Part shown: piece after piece, positions 13,740-42,060 of the stretch | How positions within the stretch are numbered: position 1 is the first letter of the stretch | Layout of the letters: every line of letters begins with the position of its first letter | DNA from: Bolinopsis microptera | Taxonomy: Eukaryota > Ctenophora > Tentaculata > Lobata > Bolinopsidae | NCBI RefSeq assembly: GCF_026151205.1 | Contig: NC_087081.1 | Coordinates: forward strand, 5,575,246 to 5,639,245 | Reading direction: 5' to 3' | Length of the DNA stretch: 64,000 nt | The notes under the pieces: model-generated | The model's database searches: none | Seen by the model: only the letters and a program-made list of their open reading frames with translations | What the model was told of the DNA's origin: nothing | Made by a program: the position numbers and the translations under genes

Positions 13740-13900
13740 TAGGCAAATTCAGCTTCGAACAAGGGTAGACCGAGGGCAGGATTTGCGACCGAGGCCGGGA
13801 ACGAGAAAAAACCGAGTAATTGTCCTGCTGACCGAGGCCGAGAAAAATCGCTATTCCTCGGTAAAACCGAAGCCGAGGACTCGGTCGACCCTTGGCTTCG
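13740..13900. repeat. Short GACCGAGGCCG-rich patch
   Basis: Several imperfect copies of ACCGAGGCCG and CCTCGGT cluster here, partly inverted. No family was recognised. Confidence 0.4.
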
Positions 13901-13960
13901 AACTCCAATCAAAAGCAGAGTTATATTGATTTTAAGTGCTATAATTGCTATTGGCGAGAG

Positions 13961-14931: not shown

Positions 14932-15640
14932 TTGATTACCACGTACAATAGAGAAATAGACCGGATAATAGAGAGGAGATTGATCTGTAGTCTGAGATAA
15001 TCTCATTTCTCAATTTTATGTTCGCTCATCGTAATCTAACTTTAATGTAATTCTATCGAGGCAAAACGTTGTCCCACCTAATCTGTTATATTCAATATTC
15101 ATTGAGCACATTATTGTGCAGTGTTCTGTGCAGTGTGCACTGTGCAGACTGCAGTTCAAACTTCTATTACAACCCGTCCTGCGACTTACATCGTGCACAA
15201 TCCCGGTTAGGTAGAAACCGTTTAGATTTCCCATCTTCTATTTTTATCTGACACTCAGTCGCGGAAATAAATATCTGATTTAAAGAAAATAACCGTGGTT
15301 TCAGAATATTTATTACTTTACTAGATATTACATAATATTCACTAACATATAATATGAGTGAAGCAGTGACAATGGTGACATGTTCAGAATTCTGGCAGCA
15401 ACGCTAGAAAATTATCATCTTGTTTACATTTTCTAAATTTAATGCATGTCTAAATTTAGTATTTATAAGCAACTTTTAAAATTATCACGTCTGGTAGAAA
15501 GACGAAGATATAACTGTAACCTTACTTCATGGTTACTTTAATAATGTTATAATTTGTTAAACATACACAGTGAGCCAGTGAACCGTTACATAATAATATC
15601 TCAAACCATACTGAGCAGTATCATCAGGACTGGATACGTA
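14932..15640. other. No recognised gene
   Basis: Only short frames. A GTGCAGTGT/CTGTGCAG-rich patch lies near 15115-15155. Nothing else is identifiable. Confidence 0.35.
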
Positions 15641-21754: not shown

Positions 21755-22352
21755 GGGTGTTGAATTTAGCTGGTCGGTGGTTGCACTTCATTCTTTAGCA
21801 ATTGTTCAGCATCAGACTCCATTTCATTACCATATATGGGCAAATATGTAGAATTTGAAGTGATACCACGAAAATTTGGTTGAATTTTAAGTGGCGTCGC
21901 ATATTCGATTACATAGAAATGTTGAGAAAATACTGAATTATATCTTTATATAATTTTCTAAATAATACCAAATTCCAAATAAAGTGTGACCATGAACTTA
22001 TATTACCGGAGTTATATTTCTGCAAAGTTCGATGCAATAATTCCATTTTTTTAAGACACTGAAAAATGTAAAGCAGATATGACTAACCGCTCGTAAACTG
22101 TGTCTTAATAGGATAATATTTCTTTAGAAAACTTCCAAAGAATACAAATAAAGAATACAATGCTTTTAAATATTAGCTTGGTCAGCTGGGTTTAACGACA
22201 CAACACTCGTCCCTAAACGATGACAACATCCCCCCAGAGGCTGCAACAATGACGACATTGCTACAGGAGTACAGGGTGTAACAATGACCTGCAATCCTTT
22301 ATCTTACTCTCATTGTATTACCCTTACATTCAGAGGGGTGTTGGTTATGCAA
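21755..22352. other. No recognised gene
   Basis: AT-rich intervening DNA between two arrays, with no usable frame. Confidence 0.35.
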
Positions 22353-23099
22353 CCTTGAATCATCGTCATAATGTAACGTCGTACCTTGAATCATCGTCAT
22401 AATGTAACGTCGTACCTTGAATCATCGTCATAATGTAACGTCGTACCTTGAATCATCGTCATAATGTAACGTCGTACCTTGAATCATCGTCATAATGTAA
22501 CGTCGTACCTTGAATCATCGTCATAATGTAACGTCGTACCTTGAATCATCGTCATAATGTAACGTCGTACCTTGAATCATCGTCATAATGTAACGTCGTA
22601 CCTTGAATCATCATCATAATGTAACGTCGTACCTTGAATCATCGTCATAATGTAACGTCGTACCTTGAATCATCGTCATAATGTAACGTCGTACCTTGAA
22701 TCATCGTCATAATGTAACGTCGTACCTTGAATCATCGTCATGATGGAACGTCGTACCTTGAATCATCGTCATAATGGAACGTCGTACCTTGAATCATCGT
22801 CATAATGGAACGTCGTACCTTGAATCATCGTCATAATGTTACGTCGTACCTTGAATCATCGTCATAATGTAACGTCGTACCTTAAATCAATATGTATTAT
22901 GTAACGTCGTACCTTGAATCATCGTCATAATGTAACGTCGTACCTTGAATCATCGTCATAATGTAACGTCGTACCTTGAATCATCGTCATAATGACGTAA
23001 CGTCGTACCTTAAATCAATATGTTTTATGTAACGTCGTACCTTAAATCAATATGTATTATGTAACGTCGTACCTTATATCATAATCATAATGTAACGTC
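22353..23099 (+). repeat. 31-bp minisatellite
   Basis: About 24 units built on TTGAATCATCGTCATAATG and TAACGTCGTA. The last units degenerate to a TTAAATCAATATG variant. The internal variants are AATGGAACG (three adjacent units, one of them with GATGG), one AATGTTACG and one CATCATCAT. Confidence 0.95.
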
Positions 23100-23303
23100 A
23101 TTACTCATTATGTAATGAATAATTAGGTGTAGCTAAGCCCAAGCCTAATTGTAACGACAAGGATGTGTTCAAAATGTAAGATGTCAGAGTTTTGTCTAAG
23201 TTGGAAAAAGTTTAAATTTGTTTCTTGAGGGTTATATTAGATTATAACCCTCTTTAAGAAACAATTTTAGGAAGATGGAACTTCTTTCCAGGATATATTA
23301 CAT

Positions 23304-23847
23304 CACGTGATCCCTCATAAACCCCCTGTCACGTGATCCCTCCTAAACCCCCTGTCACGTGATCCCTCCTAAACCCCCTGTCACGTGATCCCTCCTAAAC
23401 CCCCTGTCACGTGATCCCTCCTAAACCCCCTATCACGTGATCCCTCCTAAACCCCCTGTCACGTGATCCCTCCTAAACCCCCTGTCACGTGATCCCTCCT
23501 AAACCCCTGTCACGTGATCCCTCCTAAACCCCCTGTCACGTGATCCCTCCTAAACCCCCTGTCACGTGATCCTCCTAAACCCACTGTCACGTGATCCCTC
23601 CTAAACCCCCTGTCACGTGATCCCTCCTAAACCCCCTGTCACGTGATCCCTCCTAAACCCCCTGTCACGTGATCCCTCCTAAACCCCCTATCACGTGACC
23701 CCTCCTAAACCCCCTGTCACGTGATCCCTCCTAAACCCCCTGTCACGTGATCCCTCCTAAACCCCCTGTCACGTGATCCCTCCTAAACCCCCTGTCACGT
23801 GATCCCTCCTAAACCCACTGTCACGTGATCCCTCCTAAACCCACTGT
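23304..23847 (+). repeat. 26-bp minisatellite carrying CACGTG
   Basis: About 21 units of CACGTGATCCCTCCTAAACC plus CCCTGT, with rare variants. Almost every unit reads GTCACGTGATC across the junction, so the array lays down an E-box core every 26 bp over 540 bp. Confidence 0.95.
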
Positions 23848-24231
23848 TATGTTAGGGCGGCTGTATACTCTTATAATTGAACCGTTCTAACAGTCCTTAA
23901 CCTCTCATAGTGTACGTATTGTTACAATATCCAGGAAATATTATCACAATTAAACCCACATAACGCCATTGCCCACACCATATCATCTGCAAAACACTGG
24001 GTCTCATTGTACTGAAAACATTAACTGTAGTGTCGTAGTGAGTAAACACCGCATGGTACACCAGGTAAATGGTAATGTGTGGTACGGAAAGTACCAGTTA
24101 ATGGGTGAAACAGTATTATATGGGCAATTTCACGTAAAGTAAATTACACTTTGCACAAAAATTTGGCCTTATTCTGACTCTCAAGCATTACACAAACATA
24201 ACAGAATCATGATAAATTGCATGAAACATCT
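23848..24231. other. No recognised gene
   Basis: Unique-looking DNA between the minisatellite and the giant inverted repeat. Confidence 0.35.
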
Positions 24232-24276
24232 CCCTCATAAAAATAAACCTTACTTTAAGTAAGGTTAGTGGGGTTT

Positions 24277-24456
24277 AAAGTAACCTTTATACCTTACTTA
24301 AAGTAAGGTATTAACCTTCCTTTCTTACAAAAAAGTAATGTTAATAAGTTACTTTTTGCGCCGCGCAAAGTAACCTTTATACCTTACTTAAAGTAAGGTA
24401 TTAACCTTCCTTTCTTACAAAAAAGTAATGTTAATAAGTTACTTTTCGCGCCGCGC
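24277..24456. repeat. 90-bp tandem duplication with TTACTTAAAGTAAGG palindromes
   Basis: Two 90-bp units each contain ACCTTACTTAAAGTAAGGT and end in GCGCCGCGC. The same pair is found inverted at 38948-39129, next to the right terminus. Terminal palindromes of this kind are candidate recombinase or transposase binding sites. Confidence 0.85.
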
Positions 24457-26071
24457 GGGTCCTTCACCCGCGCTAACGTTTCTACATTTATAATAAAGCG
24501 TGTTCCAGCAAAATGTAATGAAGACCCTTTCCGAGAAGAAACAATTAAACAGACGGCGATAAGATTTTTCAATTCAGGCGATAATTTTGTATCGTATTGA
24601 GTTCGATGTTATCATTAAGTTGGAAAACTTCAACATGTTTCGCAATTCTTGCTCGTTGATAAGCTGATTTTAATTTAATGATTAAGTCGTTTGACTTACA
24701 CGATAAACGCTAGTATTGTGACGAAATTTCAAAGTGAATGTTATATATATATATACAATTTCTTTATCTATAAAGAAGTATACAGAGTTTCGAATATCAA
24801 ATTGCAACAAAATTTAAATACTATACGTTATAGTCTTATTATGGGCCCTTCATAATATCCAATATGTAACTCATTTTTTGTTTTCAAATGATAGTCCTAA
24901 ACAATCCTAATATCATAATTTCAGCTGTCGGCTGCGACCATTTGTTCAGAAGGCATTTTTTTTCGGCTGCCGCTCTTTAGAACTTCGTAACCTGGATAAA
25001 AAGATGGATTAATTATGAGTTATCTCATTCTTTTTATCCGTGATTGTTTAATATTCATAAAGTACAAAGGTTGATACTGAGGTTGATCCAGCAACCAATC
25101 AAATATGAAGGACAAGAGGAAGCAAATTTAAGTTGTATAAACAAACCAGGTGTGTCGTCGTCCTTTTATCTTGTCGACACCTGAGCGATTCCTGTCAAAT
25201 TGAACAAATGTGACCGACATTGAGAGGCCGAGAACTGAGAAGGCTGCGGAAGAGAATTTGGGTTACCAATTTATCATAAAGTACGGCTCTTTATTAAGAT
25301 ACAAGTAAGTAAAATTAAATACTAAATCATCAACACAATAAAATATAAAACGGACAGAATACATATCTGAAAATCCCAAACATTGTTTTAAAAACAAGAA
25401 TTAAATAACAAGAGTAAAACTTGTTTCTTCAATTCGTTTATGATATGGTATTTTAACCAGTATCACAAATAGAATTAGATTGTTCAATGTGCATGAGTCC
25501 CTTATCGTTCTTATCTCCTCCTCCCCCTCCTCCTCCTACTTCTTCTTCTACTACTCCTATTCTCCTAATCCTCCACAGTTTAATTAAAATTATTGTACAT
25601 TGATATCTTTACAAATTTAAATGCCTGGAGTAGCTGAAGTTTTTGTCTCTTCTGCCTGAACACCGGGAGTTGATCTGTTATGTAGCTTGATCGATAATGC
25701 CAGTGACAATGAAAATCAGTTTGCGGGTATATCGATACTCGATAGTCAATAAAGAGGACGTAAGTTTTTTAGTGATATTTAAATTATAAGTAAGTTCACA
25801 GCTTTCCTGTGTCCTCAATACTTGTGCTGACCTTCAACTGTTGATAACTTTGGAATAATGTGACTGCTTGAATGTTGTTTCTTAACTGATATGTGTGAGA
25901 GCAGATATCGGGGAAGTTGCGGCAGTAAGATATGAGGCAAAGAAAGCTGTTGCCGAGTTAAAACTCGACGAATATCGTATCCGAGATACGAGTGCCTGGA
26001 TATCAAACAAGGTAAATTGTATACAGCTTGTATACAGCTTTTATAATTGTCTTATTTCTTTTTTGATTTAG

Positions 26072-26235
26072 TGGTACCACGATTGGTGTAGTGGTAACAA
26101 ACAGAATGCCTGGGTACAAATCCTGTTGGATGCGAGTAAGCCAGTCATTAAGCTGTGAAATTATACAGCTTAGGCTGGTGGTACACACTCCCTTGCTCAC
26201 AGGCCTACCCCTATAACCATTGTGACCTGCCTGTG
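26072..26235 (+). repeat. tRNA-derived SINE-like segment (left arm)
   Basis: TGGTGTAGTGG at 26084-26094 fits a Pol III A box, and GGTACAAATCC at 26113-26123 fits a B box with one mismatch. The 18-bp gap between boxes is shorter than in a real tRNA, and no cloverleaf forms, so this is at most a decayed tRNA-derived promoter. A mirror copy is at 37185-37345 in the other arm. Confidence 0.35.
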
Positions 26236-27402
26236 TATCTTTTTGTATCATTTTTTTTATTGGTTATTGCTCCTAGTTGAATGCCAAGGTTTGTTCTCTC
26301 CAGCAAACTGAAGCAGCTGGGGATTGATATCATGAGCCATGTTAGGTCCAGATGTTTGGATCATTTGGGGCAGCATTGGGTTAATGTTAACTGGAATCCA
26401 CAAGGGTGTGTCACTTCGTCTAGTGGAGCACCTCAACAATTCATTGTATTTATCTAAAATCTATGCTACATTCTGCTAAAAACCGTTCAATATTTGATTA
26501 TAAAAATATTATTATTATCGTAGTACGGTCTGTATGTAAGTACACTGTACAGTAGTTACGTTTTAGAGAGTTTGGGCAATTGTATGGGAGCAGTAACAAG
26601 AGAAGTTCCAGAGAAGTTTATATTACCATGACAATGTGGTAAAAAACGTATCTATTGCTTAAATTACATATTATTATGTATATAAAACAATAATTCTGTT
26701 TCCATGTGATTTTTGGATATATCATATCTTAGTGAAAGAAGAAGAGATATCAAGAGTACCAAAAAACACCGGCGCCCTTATCTAGTGAGTAGTTAGTAGA
26801 AAAATTGAAGCATTCACATCTCTCAATCATTTCCCGTATCTTGTGCAGGTACCTAGAGCTCTAGAGGTTTTAATTTGAGTGACCTGGGGAATCTAGTAAC
26901 TGAAACCGTAAGTCACAACAGAAACCTTATAAACGCAGAAATTGGAGTAACACATTGAAAGCAGTGTAGAGGTTGTTTTAGTTAGGGCTACACGAGGAAA
27001 AGTTCGGAGGAAAAGTTCCTGTCCGGTTACACCTGGGGTAGCCCGAAATAGAAATGGATCAGCAATGCTGTAGTCGTATTATTCCGTATTACTTAAACTG
27101 TGACAGTGTTATGAAGCCCGAAACAGTGTTACATCCAAAGTATTTTTAGCACTGAATATTTTTCTTCAGTTCCCAAACATCTCAGTATTATGTCAGAGAA
27201 GCGTAAGCAAGACACTGTTGTCAATGAGCAATGTGATACTTCAAGTGCTTACTTGGAACTTCCCAGGATTTAGAGAGTTTAATAACCTTTTTGTTCTCAC
27301 GATGACTATTGGATGGAATCTAATTCTCCAGACATTGGAATGGAAGCTGAAGGTGTTCTTGGTGATATTAGCCTAGTCGATAAAGATACCGAGTTTTATT
27401 AA

Positions 27403-27530
27403 TCAGAAAATATTGCAGTTCCTTTCATTCACTGTGAGACATAACTTGTTATATGAAGCGATGAAAGATCTGATCGAACTCATGGGGCTGGATGAAAAAG
27501 AACTTAAACCTGTGTACCATCTCAGAAAGT
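27403..27530 (-). pseudogene. LINE C-terminal remnant, cut in the left arm
   Basis: The minus strand encodes YTGLSSFSSSPMSSIRSF and SYNKLCLTVNERN, identical to the end of the fragment at 35745-36027 in the right arm. Homology stops abruptly at 27531, where foreign DNA begins. Confidence 0.7.
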
Positions 27531-27841
27531 GAAGTCTCATGAGAGACTTCACAGTACAACCTACCTTACTCGGGAATATTATAACCGGGATAAAGTGGTG
27601 GGTTTTGGAAGATTTCGCCATATTTTTCCCGGTCAAAAATTTTACCAGTCACAAAAAAACCCGCCGACTCAGATTATGGGGTTCCAAGGGGGTGGTGATC
27701 ATCATATTTTACCTGAAGTCTCATATGTGCTAGAGAAGACTTTTGAAGCAGTGGATGGAGGGCTGTAACTTTATTGGCGGTTGCTACCATAATTTCGTTA
27801 TAATAATCACAATTTGGTTATAGAAATCAGATTTCAGGGTG

Positions 27842-28290
27842 GACCGTGATTCTCATTTCTCTTGCCCATGAATCAGTGAATCGTAGAGAAGAAAACAATT
27901 TATATGTTATAGAAGAAAACGAAAATAATAATAATATATAATATATATTATGATAATAATGTCTCTAAAGATTGATTGCTTCTCGTGTGCAGTGTGTAGA
28001 CTAAAGAAAGAGGGAGTTTTCCCCGTTAAAGTAACTTGTGGCCACATCCCGCTAGGAGTGAGTAAACTGTGCCACTATTTCATGGTCCACGGTGGATTGA
28101 TTACTGGAGCAGTAGAAGATGCAAAGCCAAGACGTTCCCCAATACCAAGCGGCGCGGTGGGCAGGAAATTAAGCTCCGGCTGACCTTCAGAGCAGTAGCC
28201 CCATTAGCGGACAAAATGAAAGTCTTGTTAAGACAACAATACAACTTCGAATTTGACGGTCAGCAGCTCAGGGGGATATCAATAATGATA
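27842..28290 (+). pseudogene. HIRAN-like protein fragment
   Basis: The reading goes from HESVNRREENNLYVI through GVFPVKVTCGHIP, GVSKLCHYFMVHGG and KPRRSPIP. After a frameshift near 28150 it continues with QEIKLRLTFRAVAP and DKMKVLLRQQYNFE. The order 'N-rich start, VxGHIPxxxS, FxxxGG, R-S-P-I-P-x-G-G-x-EI' is that of HIRAN-like domains in transposon-associated proteins of invertebrates. HIRAN domains bind DNA 3' ends; here the role would be in a mobile element's own protein. Stops precede and follow it, so it is a relic. The family call rests on memory of the motif layout and is moderate at best. Confidence 0.45.
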
Positions 28291-28558
28291 ATGGCGGGGA
28301 CATCAGCGATAATGAGAATGAGAATACGCTTTAATGAAGATTTGACTTATTATTGCTTAGATTTATTTTCCTTTAAATAGACGTGTTTTTTTTTCTATTT
28401 CTGAGTAATATCAATAACTGTAAATTGAAATAACTTCTTTAACAAGTAACAAAAACAGACATTTCGGTTGAAAATTTGTTGACCTCTGAAAATTTGTTGA
28501 CCTCTAAAAAAACTGATTTAGTGACTTTGGTAGAAGAAATGACAAAAAAATGACCTAG

Positions 28559-29650
28559 CCTCACAAAATGACAGTGTTATGCCTCACAAAATGACAGTTT
28601 TATTTTATGATACAAAGATGGCATATTTATATTGGATGCCCCTTGCCTAATTATTGGTATTCTTAAACCCAGTAAGCTTATGATGAGCCTAAATGTGTTT
28701 GTTTGATCATCAATTTTGATCAAAATGCCTCACAAAATGACACCGAAAAGCCTTACAAAATGACAATGTTTCAGATTGAATTATTTTCATCATCTAAAAT
28801 GGATCAGAAACAGTCAATACAAGAAGGAGTTAAAAATAATCATAATCTGACAATTAACAATCAAGTAGCATTAAAAAAGTGCAGTTCTGATATCAAAACT
28901 TTGATTTCAAACTCTTTGATTTCAAACTCTGATTTCAAAACTCAACGACATAAAGCTTCTATTTTGTGAAAGCAGAGAGTAATAACAACTCCTAAAACAT
29001 GTCAAACGTTAACTAAACACTGAAAAGTGATCTATCCAGTCATAGAAAATATCAAATATAACCAAATACTGTGTTCAAGTATGAAAACAAAAAATGATTT
29101 TTACGCCTCACAAAATGACATTTTTAAAGTTTTTTCAAAGTATAAAAAATGTTCCTTTTTTAATATATTCTGGTAAAAACAGAACTGGTATAATATAAAC
29201 AACATATATATCTAACAGTAAGACACGTGAAAGAATAATGAAACTTTTTCCCAAATCGGATTTGAAGTGATGCCGTTTTGGGTTGTCATTTTGTAAGGCA
29301 CTATCTCACGCGAAATTGCCCAACTTTTTTTAATCATCCTTTTTCCTGTAAAAGCGATTCTAATCTTCAATCTATTATATTTATCTAACTGTCCTAGGTG
29401 AAATCAAATTTCTATAGGCTGCTGTTAAAAAATGACAGCCGTGACGAAATTGTCATTTTGTAAGGCATGTTTTTTTGGAAGATTTCAAAGATGACAATTT
29501 TTATCGCAAAATTTACGGTTTTTCAATCAAATCAACCCCCGGGAAGAAAAATATACCTGTTGAACTACCTATCTGGATAATAAAACATGAAAAAAACTCA
29601 TTTTTGTGCATTTCAGAGCCATCTCCTTTTTCGTGTCATTTTGTAAGGCC
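28559..29650. repeat. Inverted set of TGTCATTTTGTAAGGC repeats
   Basis: GCCTTACAAAATGACA or its GCCTCACAAAATGACA variant occurs in one orientation at about 28557, 28580, 28726, 28750 and 29105. It occurs in the opposite orientation at about 29284, 29451 and 29634. This inward/outward arrangement is typical of subterminal transposase-binding repeats of a DNA transposon. A frame at 28703-28969 inside is lysine/asparagine-rich and unrecognised. Confidence 0.65.
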
Positions 29651-29659
29651 GATACCCGT

Positions 29660-29972
29660 ATCTCGAAATTCTAAAAGGAGTGAAATCTTTTAAATGGTCC
29701 TTAGAACATATCCTGAAAGTTTCAAGGTGATTGCTCAAAAAATGTAGAAGAAGATAAATTTTTAGACTCGATTTTCAGGGCGCACGATTGAAAATCGCTC
29801 GCGCAATACAATTACACATGAGCGCTGACTTTTGACTGGCAATAATTTCGTGTAGGAACAATATTTTTTCATGGGACCAAAAGTAGCAGATAGATATCAC
29901 TCCCCTCTACTAGAAACAACTATAAAATCAATTTCGAGAGAAATTTCATAAGGACCCCCCCTGCCCCCTTAA
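29660..29972. mobile_element. Half copy of the 39.6-kb TTAA MITE
   Basis: Matches the right half of the element at 39607-40178, including the GAAAATCGCTCGCGCAATAC block, CATGGGACCAAAAG and the G/C-rich end CCCCTGCCCCCTTAA. The TTAA lies at 29969-29972. The left half is missing. Confidence 0.75.
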
Positions 29973-30727
29973 CCTTAAATTGGACATAACTTACTAGCTG
30001 AAGTAGATCTAATACGTCCGAGTAGAATCTGTAAGACTGGCCTCCAGCTAACCATTTTTAAGATTCAAGCAAATCAAGGTTGTTCAAAGGATGGAAATTA
30101 TTTCGTAGGCCCTAAAATGACTCCTCCAGATCCAGTCTTAACCTTAAATTGGACAAAACTCAGAGCTGAAATAGCTCTGAAACGTCTGATTAGAATCTGT
30201 AAGACTGGCCTCCAGCTCACCATTTTTAAGATGCAAGCAAATCGAGGTTGTTCAAAGGTTGCAGGATGTTCAGCTCAACTGAACTCAATTCGCGGTATCT
30301 GTTTGATCTGAGCTTTATTCCGGCAGTTGTTAAGTCCATGTGGCTGGGGATAATTTTGCAATAATCTGAGATCCACAAGCTATCTATCAAGTATAACAAG
30401 AATTACGCCCGTGTTTCGTAGTACATCTATATAACGGGAACGGTATCATTACATGATGGCACATTTTAGGATTGAATTAATATTGTCATTAAAATGGTCA
30501 AGATGAAGGGTAGAGATAAACCGTGTCATTACAGAGGATTAGAGGGGGATTTATTGAGCAGGTGTGATTAGTAGAAAGCAGTGAGAGAAGTGAGAGCAGG
30601 GTAAAAAGAAACAGTGTAATTACCGCGACCGACGTTGGGAGGAGGATATTATATTGGACACAGCTTAGGAGCTTAATAGACAAGGCCGAGTAACTTGATA
30701 ATTTATTTATATTGATGAAATCAATAA

Positions 30728-31250
30728 GCAGTCAATGGTGTTGCTCCTGCATATCTGTGTGATCTAGTAACATTTGTTAGTTCGAGTAGCAGAAGAACTT
30801 CCTCCTTACACCTACCCGTCGGATCTACAAGATCACACCCAAGAGCGTTTCAGACTGTTGCTCCGAAAATCTGGAACCAACTACCAATTGAAATTAAGAC
30901 TTGTTCCGATGTTGATCTGTTCAAAACATTATTAAAAACTCACCTGTTTAAGAAAAGTTATGGCATGAGCGATTAATTGACAATATAATAACTTTATGTT
31001 ATTTGCTTAAACTGTTTAGGATGCAACCTAATGTCATGATCTTTTTGAACTTATTAGCAATTAGACTGTTAGCTCGCTTCACAAGCATGTCATCTTCGTT
31101 CCAAAACTTTTTATGTCCTATGCATACACTCCTTGATAGTTATCTTGATCTAGTATCTTTGTTTCACACAATAGAGCATAAGTTTTGTGGTTTATCCACT
31201 GGGCTTAGAGTTTGTGTTTAAGCTACCAAATTTTATTATTATTTTTTATT
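30728..31250 (+). mobile_element. 5'-truncated LINE insertion with ATAA duplication, left arm only
   Basis: 523 bp interrupt the left arm where the right arm is continuous (around 34847). ATAA precedes the insertion (30724-30727) and follows it (31251-31254), while the empty site has one ATAA. The 3' end is an AT-rich TTATTATTATT tail. Coding remains occupy the first half. Confidence 0.8.
30737..30976 (+). pseudogene. LINE ORF2 C-terminus (79 codons)
   Basis: The uninterrupted frame begins without a start codon: GVAPAYLCDLV, then SLHLPVGSTRSH, AFQTVAPKIWNQLP, and a final LFKTLLKTHLFKKSY before the stop. These are the classical last blocks of CR1/L2/Jockey-like LINE polyproteins (P-A-Y-L-x-x-L, A-P-x-x-W-N-x-L-P, FKxxLKTxLF). 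The catalytic domain was lost through 5' truncation. The frame has no internal stop, so the insertion is fairly recent, in agreement with its absence from the other palindrome arm. Confidence 0.85.
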
Positions 31251-31322
31251 ATAAACTTAAGTCATAACATAATATGTTTTAACATATTTATTTGAATGAC
31301 AAACCTTAGTTGATGTCATCTT

Positions 31323-31795
31323 TTAACCGGAATTGAAGATTGACTTAATGTCTTCAGGATATTCCACCATTTTTCTGCTGTTCACATTCTTGCCTACTTC
31401 TTTGAAGTTGAAAAGTGTGTATATATCACTTTGTATGACCCAGAGCTCCTGATCCTCGTCCCTAAAACGATTTTGATTGAGCAAGACAGTTAAATACAAA
31501 TTTCTGGAATCTAAAATTGAAATATGTTCACAGTTAAAAAGTTGAAAAAACAGAATCATAAGTAGGCTGTAGTTATTTTATATACCTTTGTCAAGCTGTA
31601 AATGATGTGCAATACATCTTTGTGATGTTCTACTCTTGATCTTCCTCTAAAACTCCTCAGTATTATATAAACTCTTCCAACCTGAACAGAAATGTGAAAT
31701 GAAAAGCTTCTTGTCCAGGAAGTAGGTTTAGCCCCTTTGTACAATACAGTAGTTGTGTGTTTCCTTCGCAAATAAAGTGGTCTTAAATAAATCAT
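31323..31795 (-). CDS. Two overlapping unrecognised frames, left-arm copy
   Basis: Frame 1 (31795-31556, 79 codons) begins MIYLRPLYLRRKH and contains HHKDVLHIIYSLTKVYKI. Frame 2 (31559-31323, 78 codons) overlaps its stop by ATGA and contains RFRDEDQELWVIQSDIYTL and KMVEYPEDIKSIF. The right arm holds the same frames at about 34307-34776 with one amino-acid change in frame 1. The composition looks protein-like, especially in frame 2, but I know no family. The near identity reflects the inverted repeat rather than proven selection. They could be decayed exons of one gene captured by the palindrome. Confidence 0.3.
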
Positions 31796-33084
31796 GATGG
31801 TGAACAGTTGGACAAGTTATATGTAACAATGAAAGCGATAAGTTTTACTTTTAGGTACTTAATGTTTCTTACGTACACAGAGAGACATATACATGTTGAG
31901 CAGATAGATTCTCCGATCACAACAAAATACCAAATTATTATCTATCACGATTGTTGTTGTGAATGTACCTGAAATTCAGAACATTTCCTAGGATAAAAAA
32001 GGTTTGGATGAAAGGTTACATTATGTGATCCCAGCACAGGTTATAATATGAACATATCAGGCAATTCAAAAAGTGTCGCCAAAGAATGTTCAAAAAGGTA
32101 GTAGAATATTGAACCAATGCCTTGGGAGTATCACACAGATTTCATAAAGTTTAAACAGGCCCCTTCTCATAAATTTAACCATCAATAATGTTTCCGATCA
32201 TTTTGCTGAGTCGACCAAGGATGCATTGCAAAGATGTTTTATTTTGCATAGACCTTACGGATCCTTAGTGAATCCATAAGTGCAGCTATCCAGTGGCATG
32301 GTGAGCTAAGAATTTGTTTGCAATCTCCTAGCTCAACTCAGCAGACTGATTGGGATATTCTTGATCTAGAGGGTAATTTAAGAAGGAGCTTTCCCCAAAA
32401 CGGTTCCCATCAGTACAGCTGTAAGGCAATTTAAATATTCAAATACCAATTGACCATATCATAGCATAGACAATCGCATAAAACATCCTAGATTATTATA
32501 GCTTGATAAGTTAAAACATGAACAATTATCTCACACCTCTGAAGAGACAAAAAATTAAAAAGGAGGGACCCCCAACCCTGCATCTGAGACATCGATTAGA
32601 CCCAAATGGCTTGTTAAAACTCAAGATCTCAATATTTGCAAGAATACCCTTCAGTACACTGTAAAAGATACTGCATTACTGCTACAAAATTTTCGAGAAA
32701 TTGCAAATTTAGAAGAGTTCACAAGAACAGATTTGGCTGTCAGAGCCTGTCGATAGGTAATTCTTGGCAGGCACTGCGAAACTAGACAAGAAAAGTTAAA
32801 CCTTTGGCAACCTCTTGTTTAGGGTAAATGCTATTTACAAGCGAGTCTGAACTAACAAAACAAACCTCGCTGGTCGATTAGAAAGATGACAGACAACAAT
32901 AAAATGCTAGATACCACTACAATTTATTTGCAAGTACAACGTATGGCGTAAAGGTGAGCGCTCGATTCCTAAAAGATTGAAGATTGGTGTGCCGCGCGCA
33001 AAAATTAAATTTTAAGTTCAAATTCATAAATATGAACTTAGTTTTATTTATAAAATTGATAAGTCATTTGAAAATTGTCTCACA

Positions 33085-33479
33085 TCATATATTAAAAAGG
33101 AAAACAAATATAACTAAATATAAAATAACTATTTTGTACTTATTAACAAGTTTCATTTTATTCCATTTAAATTTGTTCCCGTAAAGCTTGACAAAATATT
33201 TTATTTTAAATTAATCGTTCAATGCATTAATTTAAAATTATTTTTGTTGATTTCCGAAACAACTGGCGGAGCTAATTTAAATAAATTACAGTTTAAATTG
33301 AACTAGAATGACCTCCGCGAAAATTGTTTAGTAATAAAACAATTTTTAAATTTTACATTGAGCTAAAGTCTAAACGCGGGCACAAAATTGAAATTTCAAA
33401 TTGAATTAAGTTGTTTTTTATGTTTATAACTACAAAATAATTTTTTATTTATTTGCTTTTATTTTTAATATCTTATGTC
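33085..33479. other. Central spacer of the giant inverted repeat
   Basis: Roughly 400 bp of AT-rich DNA not matched between arms. The arms abut it with AATTTAATTTTTGCGCGCGGC-type sequence on either side. Confidence 0.7.
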
Positions 33480-33939
33480 AAAAAAATGTTCAAATGACTA
33501 ATCAATTTTATAAATATAACTTAGTTCATATTTATAAATTTAAACTTAACATTTAATTTTTGCGCGCGGCTCACCGATCTTTAATCTTTTAGGAATCGAG
33601 CGCTAACCTTCACGCCATACATTATACCTGCAAATCAGCTGCAATGGTATTCGGCATTTTTATCGTTGTCTGTTATCTTCCTAATCGACAAGCGAGGTTT
33701 GTTTTGTTAGTTCATACTCGCTAGTAAATAGCAGTTACCCTAAACAAAAGGTTGCCAAAGGTTTAAGTTTTCTTGTTTAGTTTTGCAATGCCAGCCAAGA
33801 ATTACCTATCGACAGGATCTGACAGCCAAATCTGTTCTTGTGAACTCTTCTAAATTTGCAAAGTCTCGACAATTTTTTAGCAGTAATGAAAATGACTTTT
33901 TTGTAAAGAACTACTTTTTACAGTGTACTGAAGGGTATT

Positions 33940-34150
33940 CTTACATTGAACAATACAGTCATCAAACGTGTTGAAGAAACTAAATTCCTAGGCGTAATGA
34001 TAGACAAAAATCTTAATTGAAAACCCCACACCGCTTATATTGCCTCTAAACTAAAATGTGAAGTCGGTAAACTGTGTCGTATGAGAAGATTTATATCTAA
34101 AGAACTGCATAGTGCATAAGGATCTCTACCACAGCCTCTTCCAAGTACCT
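33940..34150 (+). pseudogene. LINE reverse-transcriptase thumb fragment
   Basis: The frame reads LNNTVIKRVEETKFLGVMID, then K-N-L-N, a stop where tryptophan is expected, then HTAYIASKL and VGKLCRMRRFI. K-F-L-G-V-x-I-D followed by W-x-x-H is the standard block after the catalytic palm in LINE reverse transcriptases. After a stop, DLYHSLFQ in another frame continues the family pattern. The fragment is short, with a stop and a frameshift. Confidence 0.75.
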
Positions 34151-34298
34151 AAAAGTAAAATATCGCTTTGATTGTTACATATAACTTGTGCAACTGTTCA
34201 CCAGTAGTGCATAAGGATCTCTACCACACCCTCTTCCAAGTACCTAAAAGTAAAATATCGCTTTGATTGTTACATATAACTTGTGCAACTGTTCACCA
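34107..34298 (+). repeat. 94-bp tandem duplication
   Basis: Two copies of a unit starting AGTGCATAAGGATCTC and ending CAACTGTTCACC, nearly identical. Only one equivalent (31798-31860, partial) exists in the left arm, so the duplication arose after the palindrome. Confidence 0.85.
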
Positions 34299-34306
34299 TC
34301 ATGATT

Positions 34307-34776
34307 TATTTAATACCACTTTATTTGCGAAGGAAACACACAACTACTGTATTGTACAAAGGGGCTAAACCTACTTCCTGGACAAGAAGCTTTTCATTTC
34401 ACATTTCTGTTCAGGTTGGAAGAGTTTATATAATACTGAGGAGTTTTAGAGGAAGATCAAGAGTAGAACATCACAAAGATGTATTGCACATCATTTACAG
34501 CTTGACAAAGGTATATAAAATAACTACAGCCTACTTAGGATTCTGTTTTTTCAACTTTTTAACTGTGAACATATTTTAATTTTAGATTCCAGAAATTTGT
34601 ATTTAACTGTCTTGCTCAATCAAAATCGTTTTAGGGACGAGGATCAGGAGCTCTGGGTCATACAAAGTGATATATACACACTTTTCAACTTCAAAGAAGT
34701 AGGCAAGAATGTGAACAGCAGAAAAATGGTGGAATATCCTGAAGACATTAAGTCAATCTTCAATTCCGGTTAAAAG
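34307..34776 (+). CDS. Two unrecognised frames, right-arm copy
   Basis: Counterpart of 31323-31795. Frame 1 continues past the left-arm stop because TTAGGA replaces TTATGA, giving 98 codons in the longest reading (34283-34579). The ELWVIQSDIYTL and EYPEDIKSIF segments follow in another frame. Function unknown. Confidence 0.3.
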
Positions 34777-35744
34777 AAGACATCAACTAAGGTTTGTCAT
34801 TCAAATAAGTATGTTAGAAGGTATTATGTTATAACTTAAGTTTATTGATTTCATCAATATAAATAAATTATCAAGTTACTCGGCCTTGTCTATTAAGCTC
34901 CTAAGCTGTGTCCAATATAATATCCTCCTCCCAACGTCGGTCGCGGTAATTACACTGTTTCTTTCTACCCTGCATCTCACTTCTCTCACTGCTTTCTACT
35001 AATCACACCTGCTCAATAAATCCCCCTCTAATCCTCTGTAATGACACGGTTTATCTCTACCCTTCATCTTGACCATTTTAATGACAATATTAATTCAATC
35101 CTAAAATGTGCCATCATGTAATGATACCGTTCCCGTTATATAGATTTACTACGAAACACGGGCGTAATTCTTGTTATACTTGATAGATAGCTTGTGGTTC
35201 TCAGATTATTGCAAAATTATACCCAGCCACATGGACTTAACAACTGCCGGAATAAAGCTCAGATTAAACAATGAACAGATACCGCAAATTGAGTTCAGTT
35301 GAGCTGAGCATCCTGCTCCTTTTGGAGAACCTCGATTTGCTTGAATCTCAAATATGGTGCTAGTGAGTTATGTCCAATTTAAGGTTTAAAATACTGGATC
35401 TGGAGGAGTCATTTTAGGGCCTACGAAATAATTTCCATCGGAATTTTGTCTAACTGAACATCCCGCACCCTTTGAACAACCGAGCTATTTTCTTGAATCT
35501 CAAAATATGGCGAGCAGGAGGCCAGTCTTACAGATTCTACTCGGACGTATCAGAGCTATTTTAGCTAGTGAGTTATGTCCAATTTATGGTTAAGACTGGA
35601 TCTGGACGAGTCATTTTAAGGTCTATCAAAAAATCGTTACCACCATGTTGACCGCCATTTAATTCTACACCTTTTGGAAACAATTGATTTTTATGAATCT
35701 CAAAAATGGCGGTCTGGGGGTCAAGCATACAAAGTGTCATCATA

Positions 35745-36027
35745 AATTTCAGCTATTGAGTTGAAAGTGCTGCAGGGCAAATGCCCAAATGATGTTAACA
35801 TCCAGTTCTCAGTTTGGCAACCAAACGCTTTACAAAAATGTGTTTGCAGTTATTGGATCTCCATTGTGGAACTTAATCCCACCAAATATTCATAATATCT
35901 TTCTGAGATGATACACAGGTTTAAGTTCTTTTTCATCCAGTCCCATGAGTTCAATCAGATCCTTCATCGCTTCATATAACAAGTTATGTCTCACAGTGAA
36001 TGAAAGGAACTGCAATATTTTCTGATA
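35745..36027 (+). pseudogene. LINE C-terminal fragment
   Basis: Readable blocks are LKVLQGKCPNDVNIQF, FAVIGSPLWNLIPPNIHNIF and, after a stop, YTGLSSFSSSPMSSIRSF and LCLTVNERN. It is related to the minus-strand LINE at 8512-9232 (shared W/LKVLQG-CPND). Upstream domains are missing. Its terminal part survives in the left arm at 27403-27530, so the LINE predates the inverted duplication or was copied between arms. Confidence 0.75.
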
Positions 36028-37184
36028 AATAAAACTCGGTATCCTTATCGACTAGGCTAATATCACCAAGAACACCTTCAGCTTCCATTCCAATGTCTGG
36101 AGAATTAGATTCCATCCAATAGTCATCGTGAGAACAAAAAGGTTATTAAACTCTCTAAATCCTGGGAAGTTCCAAGTAAGCACTTGAAGTATCACATTGC
36201 TCATTGACAACAGTGTCTTGCTTACGCTTCTCTGACATAATACTGAGATGTTTGGGAACTGAAGAAAAATATTCAGTGCTAAAAATACTTTGGATGTAAC
36301 ACTGTTTCGGGCTTCATAACACTGTCACAGTTTAAGTAATACGGAATAATACGACTACAGCATTGCTGATCCATTTCTATTTCGGGCTACCCCAGGTGTA
36401 ACCGGACAGGAACTTTTCCTCCGAACTTTTCCTCGTGTAGCCCTAACTAAAACAACCTCTACACTGCTTTCAATGTGTTACTCCAATTTCTGCGTTTATA
36501 AGGTTTCTGTTGTGACTTACGGTTTCAGTTACTAGATTCCCCAGGTCACTCAAATTAAAACCTCTAGAGCTCTAGGTACCTGCACAAGATACGGGAAATG
36601 ATTGAGAGATGTGAATGCTTCAATTTTTCTACTAACTACTCACTAGATAAGGGCGCCGGTGTTTTTTGGTACTCTTGATATCTCTTCTTCTTTCACTAAG
36701 ATATGATATATCCAAAAATCACATGGAAACAGAATTATTGTTTTATATACATAATAATATGTAATTTAAGCAATAGATACGTTTTTTACCACATTGTCAT
36801 GGTAATATAAACTTCTCTGGAACTTCTCTTGTTACTGCTCCCATACAATTGCCCAAACTCTCTAAAACGTAACTACTGTACAGTGTACTTACATACAGAC
36901 CGTACTACGAGAATAGGTTTTTAGCAGAATGTAGCATAGATTTTAGATAAATACAATGAATTGTTGAGGTGCTCCACTAGACGAAGTGACACACCCTTGT
37001 GGATTCCAGTTAACATTAACCCAATGCTGCCCCAAATGATCCAAACATCTGGACCTAACATGGCTCATGATATCAATCCCCAGCTGCTTCAGTTTGCTGG
37101 AGAGAACAAACCTTGGCATTCAACTAGGAGCAATAACGGCAATAACCAATAAAAAAATGATACAAAAAGATACACAGGCAGGTC

Positions 37185-37345
37185 ACAATGGTTATAGGGG
37201 TAGGCCTGTGAGCAAGGGAGTGTGTACCACCAGCCTTAGCTGTATAATTTCACAGCTTAATGACTGGCTTACTCGCATCCAACAGGATTTGTACCCAGGC
37301 ATTCTGTTTGTTACCACTACACCAATCGTGGTACCACTAAATCAA
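37185..37345 (-). repeat. tRNA-derived SINE-like segment (right arm)
   Basis: Inverted copy of 26072-26235, with the B-box-like GGTACAAATCC complement at 37284-37294. The same caveats apply. Confidence 0.35.
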
Positions 37346-39174
37346 AAAGAAATAAGACAATTATAAAAGCTGTATACAAGCTGTATACAATTTACCTTGT
37401 TTGATATCCAGGCACTCGTATCTCGGATACGATATTCGTCGAGTTTTAACTCGGCAACAGCTTTCTTTGCCTCATATCTTACTGCCGCAACTTCCCCGAT
37501 ATCTGCTCTCACACATATCAGTTAAGAAACAACATTCAAGCGGGTCACATTATTCCAAAGTTATCAACAGTTCAAGTCAGCATAAGTATTGAGGACACAG
37601 GAAAGCTGTGAACTTACTAATAATTTAAATATCACTAAAAACTTACGTCCTCTTTATTGACTATCGAGTATCGATATACCCGCAAACTGATTTTCATTGT
37701 CACTGGCATTATCGATCAAGCTACATAACAGATCAACTCCCGGTGTTCAGGCAGAAGAGACAAAAACTTCAGCTACTCCAGGCATTTAAATTTGTAAAGA
37801 TATCAATGTACAATAATTTTAATTAAACTGTGGAGGATTAGGAGAATAGGAGTAGTAGAAGAAGAAGTAGGAGGAGGAGGGGGAGGAGGAGATAAGAACG
37901 ATAAGGGACTCATGCACATTGAACAATCTAATTCTATTTTTGATACTGGTTAAAATACCATATCATAAACGAATTGAAGAAACAAGTTTTACTCTTGTTA
38001 TTTAATTCTTGTTTTTAAAACAATGTTTGGGATTTTCAGATATGTATTCTGTCCGTTTTATATTTTATTGTGTTGATGATTTAGTATTTAATTTTACTTA
38101 CTTGTATCTTAATAAAGAGCCGTACTTTATGATAAATTGGTAACCCAAATTCTCTTCCGCAGCCTTCTCAGTTCTCGGCCTCTCAATGTCGGTCACATTT
38201 GTTCAATTTGACAGGAATCGCTCAGGTGTCGACAAGATAAAAGGACGACGACACACCTGGTTTGTTTATACAACTTAAATTTGCTTCCTCTTGTCCTTCA
38301 TATTTGATTGGTTGCTGGATCAACCTCAGTATCAACCTTTGTACTTTATGAATATTAAACAATCACGGATAAAAAGAATGAGATAACTCATAATTAATCC
38401 ATCTTTTTATCCAGGTTACGAAGTTCTAAAGAGCGGCAGCCGAAAAAAAATGCCTTCTGAACAAATGGTCGCAGCCGACAGCTGAAATTATGATATTAGG
38501 ATTGTTTAGGACTATCATTTGAAAACAAAAAATGAGTTACATATTGGATATTATGAAGGGCCCATAATAAGACTATAACGTATAGTATTTAAATTTTGTT
38601 GCAATTTGATATTCGAAACTCTGTATACTTCTTTATAGATAAAGAAATTGTATATATATATATAACATTCACTTTGAAATTTCGTCACAATACTAGCGTT
38701 TATCGTGTAAGTCAAACGACTTAATCATTAAATTAAAATCAGCTTATCAACGAGCAAGAATTGCGAAACATGTTGAAGTTTTCCAACTTAATGATAACAT
38801 CGAACTCAATACGATACAAAATTATCGCCTGAATTGAAAAATCTTATCGCCGTCTGTTTAATTGTTTCTTCTCGGAAAGGGTCTTCATTACATTTTGCTG
38901 GAACACGCTTTATTATAAATGTAGAAACGTTAGCGCGGGTGAAGGACCCGCGCGGCGCGAAAAGTAACTTATTAACATTACTTTTTTGTAAGAAAGGAAG
39001 GTTAATACCTTACTTTAAGTAAGGTATAAAGGTTACTTTGCGCGGCGCAAAAAGTAACTTATTAACATTACTTTTTTGTAAGAAAGGAAGGTTAATACCT
39101 TACTTTAAGTAAGGTATAAAGGTTACTTTAAACCCCACTAACCTTACTTAAAGTAAGGTTTATTTTTATGAGGG

Positions 39175-39602
39175 CTCTTATGTACTCCACACACAGCTAT
39201 ATTAAGATTTTTACTCCAACTGCTATGGCTTTTGAGTGAGGCACGTTTGAAAATGTAAAGTAAATTACAGGGCACAAATTGACATTCCTGACCAACGTGT
39301 ATTGAAATCTCATTTCGTGCCCAGGTGTGAGAGTAAACATTTAAATATTTTTCATGCACACTGGCAAATGTCTTGCCTGTACTGGAAAGGGTTTGTTTTG
39401 GTAAATGGTTAATAGCTGTGTTCTGTAGAAGCCTTTGTTCCTTGTAAAGTAAGTTACTCTTTTGTGTCAAGTAGTTTACACTGTTACACAATCCTTTGAT
39501 TTTAACTGTTTAAAGCTGCCCCTTTGTCTTTAATTCGTTTGCTAAGTGTATGAACTATGTAATATATGATTAATAATGATATATCAGTTTATCATTAGCC
39601 AA
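39175..39602. other. Flank between palindrome and MITE
   Basis: A 115-codon minus frame (39144-39491) crosses the palindrome edge and has no recognisable domain. Otherwise nothing was seen. Confidence 0.35.
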
Positions 39603-40182
39603 TTAAGGGGGCCGGGGGGGCCTTCATCAAAATTTTCTCGAAATTGACTTTATAGTTGTTTCTAATAGAGGGGAGTGATATCTATCAGATGCTTTTGGTC
39701 CCATGGAAAAATATTGTTCCTAGACGAAATTATTATCGGTCAAATGTCAGCGCTTATGTGTAATTGTATTGCGCGAGCGATTTTCAATTTTTGAAAATCT
39801 TGGACCTCAAAAAATCGTCAAAAAACGAGGTTCAAGATTTTCAAAATCGAATAAAATATGTTTAAAGGCCTATATCAAAATTCTGTTTGGCTCATCTCTT
39901 TTAAATTATCTCTAGAACATATCCTGAAAGTTTCAGGGTGATTGCTCAAAACATGTAGGAGAAAATAGATTTTTAGACTCGATTTTCAGGACACGTGATT
40001 GAAAATCGCTCGCGCAATACAATTACACATAAGTGCTGATCTTTGACCGACAATAATTTCGGCTAGGAATAATATTTTTCCATGGGACCAAAAGCATCTG
40101 ATAAATATCACTCCCTTCTATCAGAAACAATTAAAAAGTCAATTTCGAGGGAATTTTGATGAAGACCCCCCGGCCCCCTTAA
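39603..40182. mobile_element. 572-bp TTAA-flanked MITE
   Basis: TTAA (39603-39606) is followed by GGGGGCCGGGGGGG. The other end is CCCCCCGGCCCCC followed by TTAA (40179-40182). Inverted homology between ends extends about 180 bp, through CATCAAAATTTTC and TTTTGGTCCCATGG. No coding capacity. TTAA targets suggest mobilisation by a piggyBac-like transposase. A half copy lies at 29660-29972. Confidence 0.8.
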
Positions 40183-42060
40183 TTGGTTGATTGATCCACT
40201 GATTGGGTCCACAGTTAGCCCAGTTATACAGAGTAGGTAGGTGGGCGTAAATGTACGAATGTTTCCCAGCTCAAAAATTTGTGTTCAAGCAGGCCACTGG
40301 ATTTTCTGTAAAGTAAAGTATTATTTATATTATATTTTCGAAAAGTCAATTTTTAACCATTTTAAACCATTTTTATAGATTTCTTTAATGAAATTCTGAC
40401 CAGAACCAATCTATTATCACTTTTAAATAACTTTTATTCTGTTTGACAATCGTTACTTGTTGTGTTTTACTACTATTACTGAATAAAAAGCATATGTGTA
40501 AATTACTTGACACGTAAATTACTTGACATGTAACTTACTTGACGCTGGTATTGACATGATCTGATATCTATGGATCTAAATAAACAAGTACATTATGTCT
40601 TGACATCAGAGTTAGCTTGTTTTAGCAAGATTTCAGCAAGAAATAACATGAAATGTGGCCAGCAGAAAACTTTTTTGTTTTTTATGTATAGTAATTTACA
40701 CTAAAAACAGGAGAAAGTAGAATAGCATTGCTCCGAATCTGCTTAAATTTTGAGTCCCAAATTTTGCATACAGCTTCAGTGAAGTGGTATGCACCTTTAC
40801 AGATCAAGAATTAATGAATATTACAACAATCTCTTTTTAGTAAACAGCTTTTATTATAGAGTAGTTTTAGCCTGTAAAACATGACAATTTATGGGTATTT
40901 TGAAAACGCGATAACACAGAAACGAAGTGAGATATTTATAAGCGGTTTTTTGTGTCTAACAGTTTATAATCTTCTCTTTCAGACTCCAATCAAAGCTAGT
41001 GCCATAACTGAAATTTATTTTTTTCCCTCCTTGTTCATGTTTCATGAAATTGCCCATATATGGTACATAATATGGTTCATAATAATATGGTACCACTCAG
41101 TTTGTTAGCTGTTAAAAGTGCTGATTCGCAATAATTTGTAGCCAGAAACAAATTGAATTTCTCTCTACACCACATAGTAGATGGTACTTCTTTAACGACA
41201 TAATCTAATAGATATAAAAAATACCTAGTCGCTGTCAGTCGCAGTACGTCTCATCTCTTTGATGTAGAGGGTGTTTCAAAACTGTTATAGCCAGTACTGG
41301 GTCACTCCTAACACGACGTATTTTAGAGTGTTACACACTTACACTGCAAGCTTAAAACGCCTCTGCAATGCGGGCTACAAATCTCATAATAACATATTAA
41401 TTGTATTGCAGTGAGCGCGAGCAAGTCTAACCTTGCTCGGTAACAATAATGCATTGTGTTTATGATTGAAGGCCCTTCTTATGGAGAAAATGACTCCCAT
41501 GAGTCGACATCATTATCGTATTGAGATTCTTTAAAAATCAGAATATAATTAGCTCTTGATGATCTTGAACAGGTCAAACAGAGCAGTCCAAATCCTGCAT
41601 CGCATTTGTTTAATTACCATTTATAGCATTGTTTAATTACCCTTTATAGCATTCGGGTGTGCAAAATTCCAGACGACAGGTTAGACCAGATCTTGCCATT
41701 ACAAATTCCAACAACATTGTTTGAAGGTTTTTATCGTATTCTGGTGCAAAATTTGAAATGAATGTTTTGGTGGTTATTTAATTGTGAAGTTGTGAAGGAA
41801 CAGGTGTAACCAGTATTATCGGGTGTGATTAATCACATTATCTAGGTCCATTCATGGAAGTACTGTGTTCATTACAATGTTATGTCGCCGACAAGATGAC
41901 CCTATTTAAATCTTTATCTCAACACGAAAATGGAGCTGGTTTAACCCATATCAACCCAACCACTCTAAACATTCGAATTTTTTGATGAAATTTGGTGTCC
42001 TGCGTCCTAAGGGGCTATCTTAGATATTGCAACAGTGATTTTTAAAAATTGTGTTTTGCT
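40183..42060. other. No recognised gene
   Basis: Three degenerate copies of GTAAATTACTTGACA lie at 40498-40545. A 75-codon + frame (40881-41108) and others look random. No array or terminal repeat was found. Confidence 0.35.

What the first reader, a model, noticed from the sequence alone, without database searches (positions are those of the whole stretch)
24232..39174. Giant (about 15 kb) inverted repeat with near-identical outer arms
The outer 3 kb of each arm are almost identical at equal distances from the ends. The inner parts carry arm-specific insertions, and the centre at about 33.3 kb is a nested inverted repeat with a 400-bp spacer. Each terminus has duplicated ACCTTACTTAAAGTAAGGT palindromes. 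This could be a very large foldback element, a chromosomal palindrome kept alike by gene conversion, or an inverted haplotype join in assembly. No Polinton polymerase or integrase is visible.
Basis: partly seen in the sequence, partly recalled or inferred. Interest (0 to 1): 0.7.

Follow-up and report, generated by a model that had tools for sequence, protein, structure and literature searches.

The report
Giant palindromic jumping element
This is a 15-kilobase mobile DNA element, probably in a comb jelly, whose two halves are mirror copies of each other; relatives of it lie on several other chromosomes, and its mirror arms are longer than those of the fold-back elements described in the papers consulted.

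Summary
Window 24232-39174 is a near-palindrome: outer 3.3-kb arms 98.4% alike with gaps (99.5% without), central arms ~12% diverged. It is an inserted mobile element. Its flanks overlap by exactly 2 bp (CT), and 30 of 40 scored genome matches to the joined flanks run uninterrupted across the junction; two were read base by base. Related palindromes lie on other chromosomes. Of eight loci with both ends read, seven have unrelated flanks and all seven show an exact 2-bp target duplication (chance about 9e-9); the eighth, a 1.1-kb copy, stays symmetrical beyond its ends and cannot be used. Removing the C11 element plus 2 bp restores a frame of 1,218 codons. No transposase gene was found. Best reading: giant non-autonomous foldback DNA transposons, moved in trans by an unidentified transposase; outer arms are repeatedly made alike while the window's centre keeps an inherited left/right difference.

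The parts
24232..39174 (.). whole palindromic element, 14,943 bp
   Evidence: empty site
24230..24231 (.). target-site duplication CT, left copy
39175..39176 (.). target-site duplication CT, right copy
24232..24249 (+). terminal motif CCCTCATAAAAATAAACC, left end
   Evidence: the 17-mer CCCTCATAAAAATAAAC has 5 exact genome matches: window 2, C11 2, C1 1
39157..39174 (-). terminal motif, right end
24277..24456 (+). two tandem 90-bp subterminal units with the palindromes CCTTACTTAAAGTAAGG
   Evidence: CCTTACTT occurs 3 times on each strand in the first 300 bp and not in the next 5 kb
38950..39129 (-). mirror copy of the tandem 90-bp subterminal units
24232..27529 (+). left outer arm
   Evidence: (16 mismatches in 3,267 ungapped columns against the right arm)
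35899..39174 (-). right outer arm
27530..29967 (.). left-arm-specific stretch; no matching stretch between the flanking blocks of the C7 relative, and ~300 bp of other sequence on the right arm; includes a copy of a small foldback repeat at 29686-29972
29968..30727 (+). left middle arm block
34842..35594 (-). right middle arm block
30728..31250 (+). left-arm insertion with a retrotransposon-like ORF tail (resemblance recalled), absent from the right arm and from the C7 relative
31251..31860 (+). left inner arm block B, with relatives at 66-79% identity in the C3, C4, C5, C6 and C8 palindromes
34238..34845 (-). right inner arm block B
32444..32550 (+). 107-bp block ~89-90% identical to C8-type palindromes; matched only on the left here, on both arms in C8, C5, C4 and C6
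32637..33148 (+). left central arm, diverged
33421..33945 (-). right central arm, diverged
33149..33420 (.). central spacer (loop)
24116..24231 (+). left part of the dispersed repeat into which the palindrome inserted (left edge approximate)
39175..39426 (+). right part of the same host repeat (continues beyond the stretch tested)

Best explanation
A family of giant non-autonomous foldback (long terminal inverted repeat) DNA transposons. SHOWN: the whole palindrome is the inserted unit, with fixed ends (CCCT....AGGG) and 2-bp target duplications; copies with very different arm divergence exist; no transposase ORF was found in the copies examined; outer arms agree within a copy more than between copies in the C8/C5/C4/C6 group and in the window against C7; the window's central arms keep a left/right difference shared with C7. 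INFERRED: a transposase supplied in trans by another element recognises the ends and the palindromic subterminal repeats and moves the palindrome by cut-and-paste. The arms are made alike again in active lineages by gene conversion, or by gap repair after excision in which one arm templates the other, and drift apart once a copy is dead. Diverged central arms escape because they are too different to recombine.
For: Insertion: of 40 scored genome matches to the joined window flanks, 30 run across the junction at 91-100% identity (57 candidates, 40 scored). In the two read by base the flanks overlap by exactly 2 (CT), with no mismatch over 115+250 bp for the C10 copy and 110+250 bp for the C5 copy. 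C11 removal plus 2 bp leaves an open frame of 1,218 codons across the junction. Exact 2-bp duplication in 7 of 7 elements with unrelated flanks (W, C8, C5, C4, C3, C6, C11), chance 9e-9. Family: related palindromes on C3, C4, C5, C6, C8, C13 and others. Concerted arms: C8 arms differ at 4 positions in a 5,357-column alignment; across C8/C5/C4, 35 sites are shared by both arms of one copy and none separates left from right arms across copies, among 5,315 gap-free columns of 5,612. Window arms are 99.4% alike in 24884-27529 but 97.8% to the C7 left arm. Centre: 28 sites group by side and 1 by copy. Diverged copies: arms ~77-80% over most of C6:8505573-8520445.
Against: No transposase or autonomous partner was found. 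C11 arms are 96.1% alike while the C11 right arm is 99.6-99.7% like the C1 right arm, so arms are not made alike at every move. In the 29968-30727 block the window arms (95.6%) are no closer to each other than the left arm is to C7 (96.1%). C5-left is closer to C5-right by mismatches (15) than to C8-left (21), but C5-right is closer still to C8-left (6). The short C12 copy stays symmetrical for at least ~290 bp beyond its ends (82%), which a simple insertion of a palindrome does not explain. Large elements (C11, C6, C3) carry long unique interiors; C11 has a 798-aa ORF of unknown role, so autonomy of some member is not excluded. Of the 23 single-arm changes in C5-left, 21 lie between alignment columns 4867 and 5452, so some may be assembly error. 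The superfamily is unassigned.
Confidence: 0.85

Rival explanations
1. Assembly artefact: inverted join of two haplotypes or a read foldback.
For: Palindromes are a classic assembly error; no reads were available here.
Against: Symmetry stops at defined termini with unrelated flanks and 2-bp duplications in 7 of 8 loci with both ends read; window arms differ by substitutions and by extra stretches of 0.5 and 2.4 kb; the window flanks rejoin to an exact empty site.
Confidence: 0.02
2. A chromosomal palindrome formed in place by inverted duplication and kept alike by gene conversion, as on sex chromosomes.
For: Outer arms evolve in concert. At the short C12 locus the symmetry runs on beyond the ends, which suits local inverted duplication there.
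Against: For the window: empty site and target duplication, unrelated flanks; related palindromes on several other chromosomes.
Confidence: 0.03
3. Transposition itself regenerates the palindrome: one arm is copied into the other through a hairpin or template switch at every move.
For: Arms are most alike in copies that resemble each other closely and most diverged in old ones; no left/right polymorphism shared by C8, C5 and C4.
Against: C11/C1 and the window centre carry old left/right differences through moves.
Confidence: 0.15
4. A decayed virus-like giant element (Polinton/Maverick or other) whose genes were lost.
For: Similar overall length; long inverted ends.
Against: 2-bp rather than 5-6-bp duplication (the latter recalled); no ORF of 150 aa or more in the window element, none over 110 aa; the arms themselves fill most of the element.
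Confidence: 0.02
5. Some member is autonomous (for example C11 with its 798-aa ORF) and the palindromes are its internal-deletion, arm-expanded derivatives.
For: C11 has window-type termini, a 2-bp duplication and a unique interior.
Against: The 798-aa ORF has no Pfam match at E 0.1 and a long low-complexity middle; no match in the other loci fetched, and only a weak 28-residue one in the C1 piece; its genome search did not complete.
Confidence: 0.2

Closest known systems
Galileo (P superfamily, Drosophila)
   Same: Long, internally repetitive inverted arms; non-autonomous two-arm copies; 98-100% identity between the arms of one copy is stated in PMC3573991 (passages read).
   Different: Arms 18-1,250 bp there against ~5-7 kb here; copies bounded by 7-bp sequences there against 2 bp here; P transposase known there, none found here.
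Tetris foldback transposon (Drosophila virilis)
   Same: Non-autonomous, no conserved ORF, tandem units in the arms, autonomous partner not found (PMC4079207, passages read).
   Different: Arms up to 1,735 bp and 8-10-bp duplications there.
CACTA/EnSpm and the CMCT group
   Same: 2-5-bp duplications (PMC12730594, passages read); repeated subterminal motifs in both orientations (recalled for CACTA; seen here); the end CCCTACAAAAAAT of the C8-type copies resembles the En/Spm end CACTACAAGAAAA (recalled).
   Different: CMCT ends are 5'-CA..TG-3' in most cases; here CCC..GGG. No transposase shown.
Teratorn
   Same: Giant mobile element with long inverted repeats (PMC6431247, passages read).
   Different: 41-182 kb with herpesvirus genes and a piggyBac-like transposase there.
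Gene-converted chromosomal palindromes
   Same: Arms kept alike (recalled).
   Different: Not mobile, no target duplication (recalled).

Membership tests
Foldback-type (long-TIR, non-autonomous) DNA transposon | Long inverted arms occupying most of the element | tested here: met
   not so for C11, whose repeated arms are ~1.7 of 20.3 kb
Foldback-type (long-TIR, non-autonomous) DNA transposon | Precise ends and target-site duplication at dispersed loci | tested here: met
   7 of 7 usable loci; window empty site
Foldback-type (long-TIR, non-autonomous) DNA transposon | Tandem or subterminal repeats in the arms | tested here: met
Foldback-type (long-TIR, non-autonomous) DNA transposon | Moved by a transposase in trans | not testable with these tools
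   no partner found; functional assay needed
Galileo / P superfamily | 7-8-bp target duplication | tested here: not met
   2 bp in 7 of 7
Mutator-type foldback | 8-10-bp target duplication | tested here: not met
   2 bp in 7 of 7
CACTA/EnSpm (CMCT) | 2-5-bp target duplication | tested here: met
   range
CACTA/EnSpm (CMCT) | 5'-CA..TG-3' termini | tested here: not met
   ends are CCC..GGG; says 'in most cases'
CACTA/EnSpm (CMCT) | CACTA transposase (PF02992) in the genome | tested here: inconclusive
   0 matches, but 0 of 14 control genomes rang either
Polinton/Maverick | Protein-primed polymerase and integrase genes | tested here: not met
   no ORF of 150 aa or more listed in the window element
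Polinton/Maverick | 5-6-bp target duplication (recalled) | tested here: not met
   2 bp

The most novel reading that the evidence does not exclude
A transposition cycle in which the mobile unit is a 15-kb palindrome that copies one arm into the other as part of each successful move (hairpin or template-switch regeneration), so that the arms act as each other's repair template and mutations in one arm are erased or doubled at every round, except near the centre.
Probability: 0.13. Interest if true: 0.85.

Novelty: new variant of a known kind. Interest (0 to 1): 0.6.

Why it matters
Palindromes in DNA are widely regarded as fragile (abstract start seen in a listing, PMC7999016), yet this genome holds palindromes of 14.5 to 36 kb that moved as units and whose aligned outer arms are 97-99.9% alike. 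They offer natural experiments on palindrome stability and arm-to-arm gene conversion in an animal that is probably a comb jelly. A transcript through one would be a multi-kilobase hairpin, a possible trigger of small-RNA silencing (inference). They also show that transposons with 2-bp duplications can carry arms several times longer than those in the foldback papers consulted.

Tried and rejected
Coding potential of the arms: stop-to-stop ORFs in the window element reach 110 aa at most; those in the palindromic arms of fetched copies are short. Pfam on seven ORFs found one reverse-transcriptase piece below its cut-off; on five more, one clear reverse transcriptase, one weak one below cut-off, and weak hits below cut-off in two others. 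Blocks conserved between sub-families have gaps that are not multiples of three, so they do not look coding. Rfam at gathering threshold: one tRNA, outside the element, in six sources.

C12:9264432 and its 284-aa ORF were followed as a possible autonomous element; the similarity to the short C12 copy stops after ~560 bp and the ORF lies outside. C6:12941217 was followed as a lone terminus; a 1.4-kb self-palindrome (95%) lies near it and no transposase-like ORF was seen. The C6 14.4-kb interior is a separate insertion with its own CACTC..CAGTG ends and a 5-bp AGATT duplication. The C11 798-aa ORF has no Pfam match; role unknown. CACTA transposase PF02992: 0 matches, controls silent too.

Dropped from the duplication count: the short C12 copy (symmetrical beyond its ends, so a matching self-complementary TA proves nothing) and C6:8505573-8520445 (different outer sequence, no clear duplication).

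Literature: nine searches. Among the titles and abstract starts listed (lists were capped) none was about giant palindromic transposons or such elements in comb jellies; only open-licence papers are held. Passages were read in PMC3573991, PMC6431247, PMC4079207, PMC12730594, PMC11797021, PMC10232365 and PMC12221973; other papers were seen in listings only.
Full report
WHAT IS THERE. Window 24232-39174 is an imperfect palindrome of 14,943 bp. The outer arms align over 3,307 nt at 98.4%, with 16 mismatches in 3,267 ungapped columns, one of them in the first ~1.5 kb. Further in, the arms match at 95.2%, 98.2% and, next to the centre, 88.1%, around a spacer of 272 nt or 408 nt by exact seeds. The left arm carries extra stretches at 27530-29967 and 30728-31250. 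No stop-to-stop ORF of 150 aa or more lies in the element; the longest seen is 110 aa.

IT IS AN INSERTION. The two flanks share exactly CT and are otherwise unrelated. A search with the joined flanks, one CT kept, scored 40 of 57 candidates and gave 40 matches: 30 run across the junction at 91-100% identity, 2 are the window's own flanks, and 8 are partial. In the two copies read by base, the left and right flanks overlap by exactly 2 bp; the C10 copy has no mismatch over 115 bp on the left and 250 bp on the right, the C5 copy none over 110 and 250. So the palindrome sits inside another dispersed repeat. Because that repeat copy is still identical to others, the insertion looks recent. The centre, 12% diverged, is then older than the insertion: the element arrived as an imperfect palindrome (inference, supported by the sites shared with C7 below).

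IT IS A FAMILY. A search with the outer 1.2 kb gave 38 matches, among them seven opposed pairs 10.7-27 kb apart, the window's included. Fetched loci confirm palindromes at C8:3405544-3421203, C5:22709942-22724468, C4:7541144-7556020, C3:1925931-1952238 and C6:15773077-15809467, and a 20.3-kb element with window-type ends at C11:18204457-18224800 whose repeated outer arms are only ~1.7 kb. Inner blocks point to more loci with opposed pairs (C13:9062366-9077310, C6 near 8.51, 12.43 and 15.53 Mb, C5 near 13.73 Mb, C12 near 8.76 Mb, C7 near 17.13 Mb). Eight loci had both ends read. Seven have unrelated flanks, and all seven show a duplication of exactly 2 bp: CT (window), TG (C8), TT (C5), CA (C4), TT (C3), CA (C6), TA (C11); chance 9e-9 from dinucleotide make-up. 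The eighth, the 1.1-kb copy C12:9228812-9229907, is symmetrical for at least ~290 bp beyond its ends (82%), so its TA cannot count, and it may have arisen by local inverted duplication or lie inside a larger palindrome. C6:8505573-8520445 has other outer sequence and no clear duplication and is not counted; C1, C7, C13 and others lack a readable pair of ends. At C11, removal of the element plus 2 bp gives an open frame of 1,218 codons, open at both fetched ends (removal of 5 or 8 bp also keeps the frame, as it must; the sequence match is 2).

HOW THE ARMS BEHAVE. C8, C5 and C4 outer arms (six sequences, 5,612 columns, 297 with a gap dropped): of 5,315 columns, 5,240 are invariant; 29 separate both C4 arms and 6 both C5 arms from the rest; 40 are single-arm changes, 23 of them in C5-left and mostly clustered; none separates left from right arms across copies. 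C8 arms differ at 4 positions over 5,357 columns. In the window against its decayed C7 relative: in the outer stretch 24884-27529 the window arms are 99.4% alike and each 97.8% like C7; in block B 5 sites group by copy and 1 by side; in the 29968-30727 block the window arms (95.6%) are no closer to each other than the left arm is to C7 (96.1%); in the central arms 28 sites group by side and 1 by copy. Thus the outer arms were made alike within the window's lineage, the 30-kb block shows no such sign, and the centre carries an inherited polarity. A further exception: the C11 arms are 96.1% alike although the C11 right arm is 99.6-99.7% like the C1 right arm. The C6:8505573-8520445 copy has arms of ~77-80% over most of its length, so likeness is not kept for ever.

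WHO MOVES IT. Unknown. No transposase ORF was found in the copies examined. The ends CCCT..AGGG with 2 bp fit no group tested cleanly: the CMCT group makes 2-5-bp duplications but mostly has CA..TG ends (PMC12730594); PF02992 gave 0 matches with silent controls. The likeness of CCCTACAAAAAAT to the En/Spm end is recalled, a lead only.

WHERE. The genome has 264,652,675 bases in 232 contigs; contig lengths shown include 26,206,493 (C1) and 20,825,282 (C11). PMC11797021 lists Bolinopsis microptera with 265 Mb, 13 chromosomes, largest 26.2 Mb, N50 20.8 Mb, GC 38.5% and 346 scaffolds. Size, largest contig and the N50 value fit; the scaffold number does not (346 against 232 here). This comb jelly is the likely source by inference; no tool named it.

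COMPARISON. Galileo arms are 18-1,250 bp, Tetris arms up to 1,735 bp with 8-10-bp duplications. The present elements work like foldback elements but have arms of about 5-7 kb and 2-bp duplications, so they are filed as a new variant of that kind, superfamily open. The literature searches named under Tried and rejected listed nothing on such elements.

Noticed in passing
window 24116-24231 and 39175-39426+: A dispersed repeat with 30 of 40 scored matches 91-100% identical across the palindrome's insertion point, so itself probably recently active. Its full extent and class were not determined.
   Followed up: partly
L033:1-1701 (C12:9228500-9230200): A 1.1-kb member of the family whose inverted symmetry continues for at least ~290 bp beyond both ends (82%), unlike the seven other loci tested.
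   Followed up: partly
window 11297-14938 and 56823-60440: Two smaller inverted-repeat structures (arms 976 bp at 96.7% and ~1.4 kb at 84%); the first has a possible 3-bp flank match, and their ends differ from the giant element's.
   Followed up: partly
window 39583-40203 and 29686-29972: A small G-rich-ended foldback repeat next to the element and again inside its left arm; related stretches occur in the C3, C4, C5, C6, C8 and C10 loci.
   Followed up: partly
window 20595-21757, 22352-23099, 23303-23847, 42358-44147: Long minisatellites (units 40, 31, 26, 42 bp); GC skew is +0.71 over 42-44 kb.
   Followed up: no
L022:1269 to L023:5703 (C6:15782268-15796702): A 14.4-kb insertion in the centre of a palindrome, with ends CACTCCTGCGCGC..GCAGTG and a 5-bp AGATT duplication; possibly Transib-like (recalled).
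   Followed up: partly
L015:6307-8700 (C11 element interior): A 798-aa ORF with a repetitive Ser/Ala/Pro middle and no Pfam match inside a family member.
   Followed up: partly
L015:2-1501 and L017:1779-4001: An uncharacterised frame of at least 1,218 codons without Pfam match, interrupted by the C11 palindrome.
   Followed up: no
window 53509-53582: A tRNA gene on the minus strand, near a perfect 72-bp palindrome at 53321-53392.
   Followed up: no
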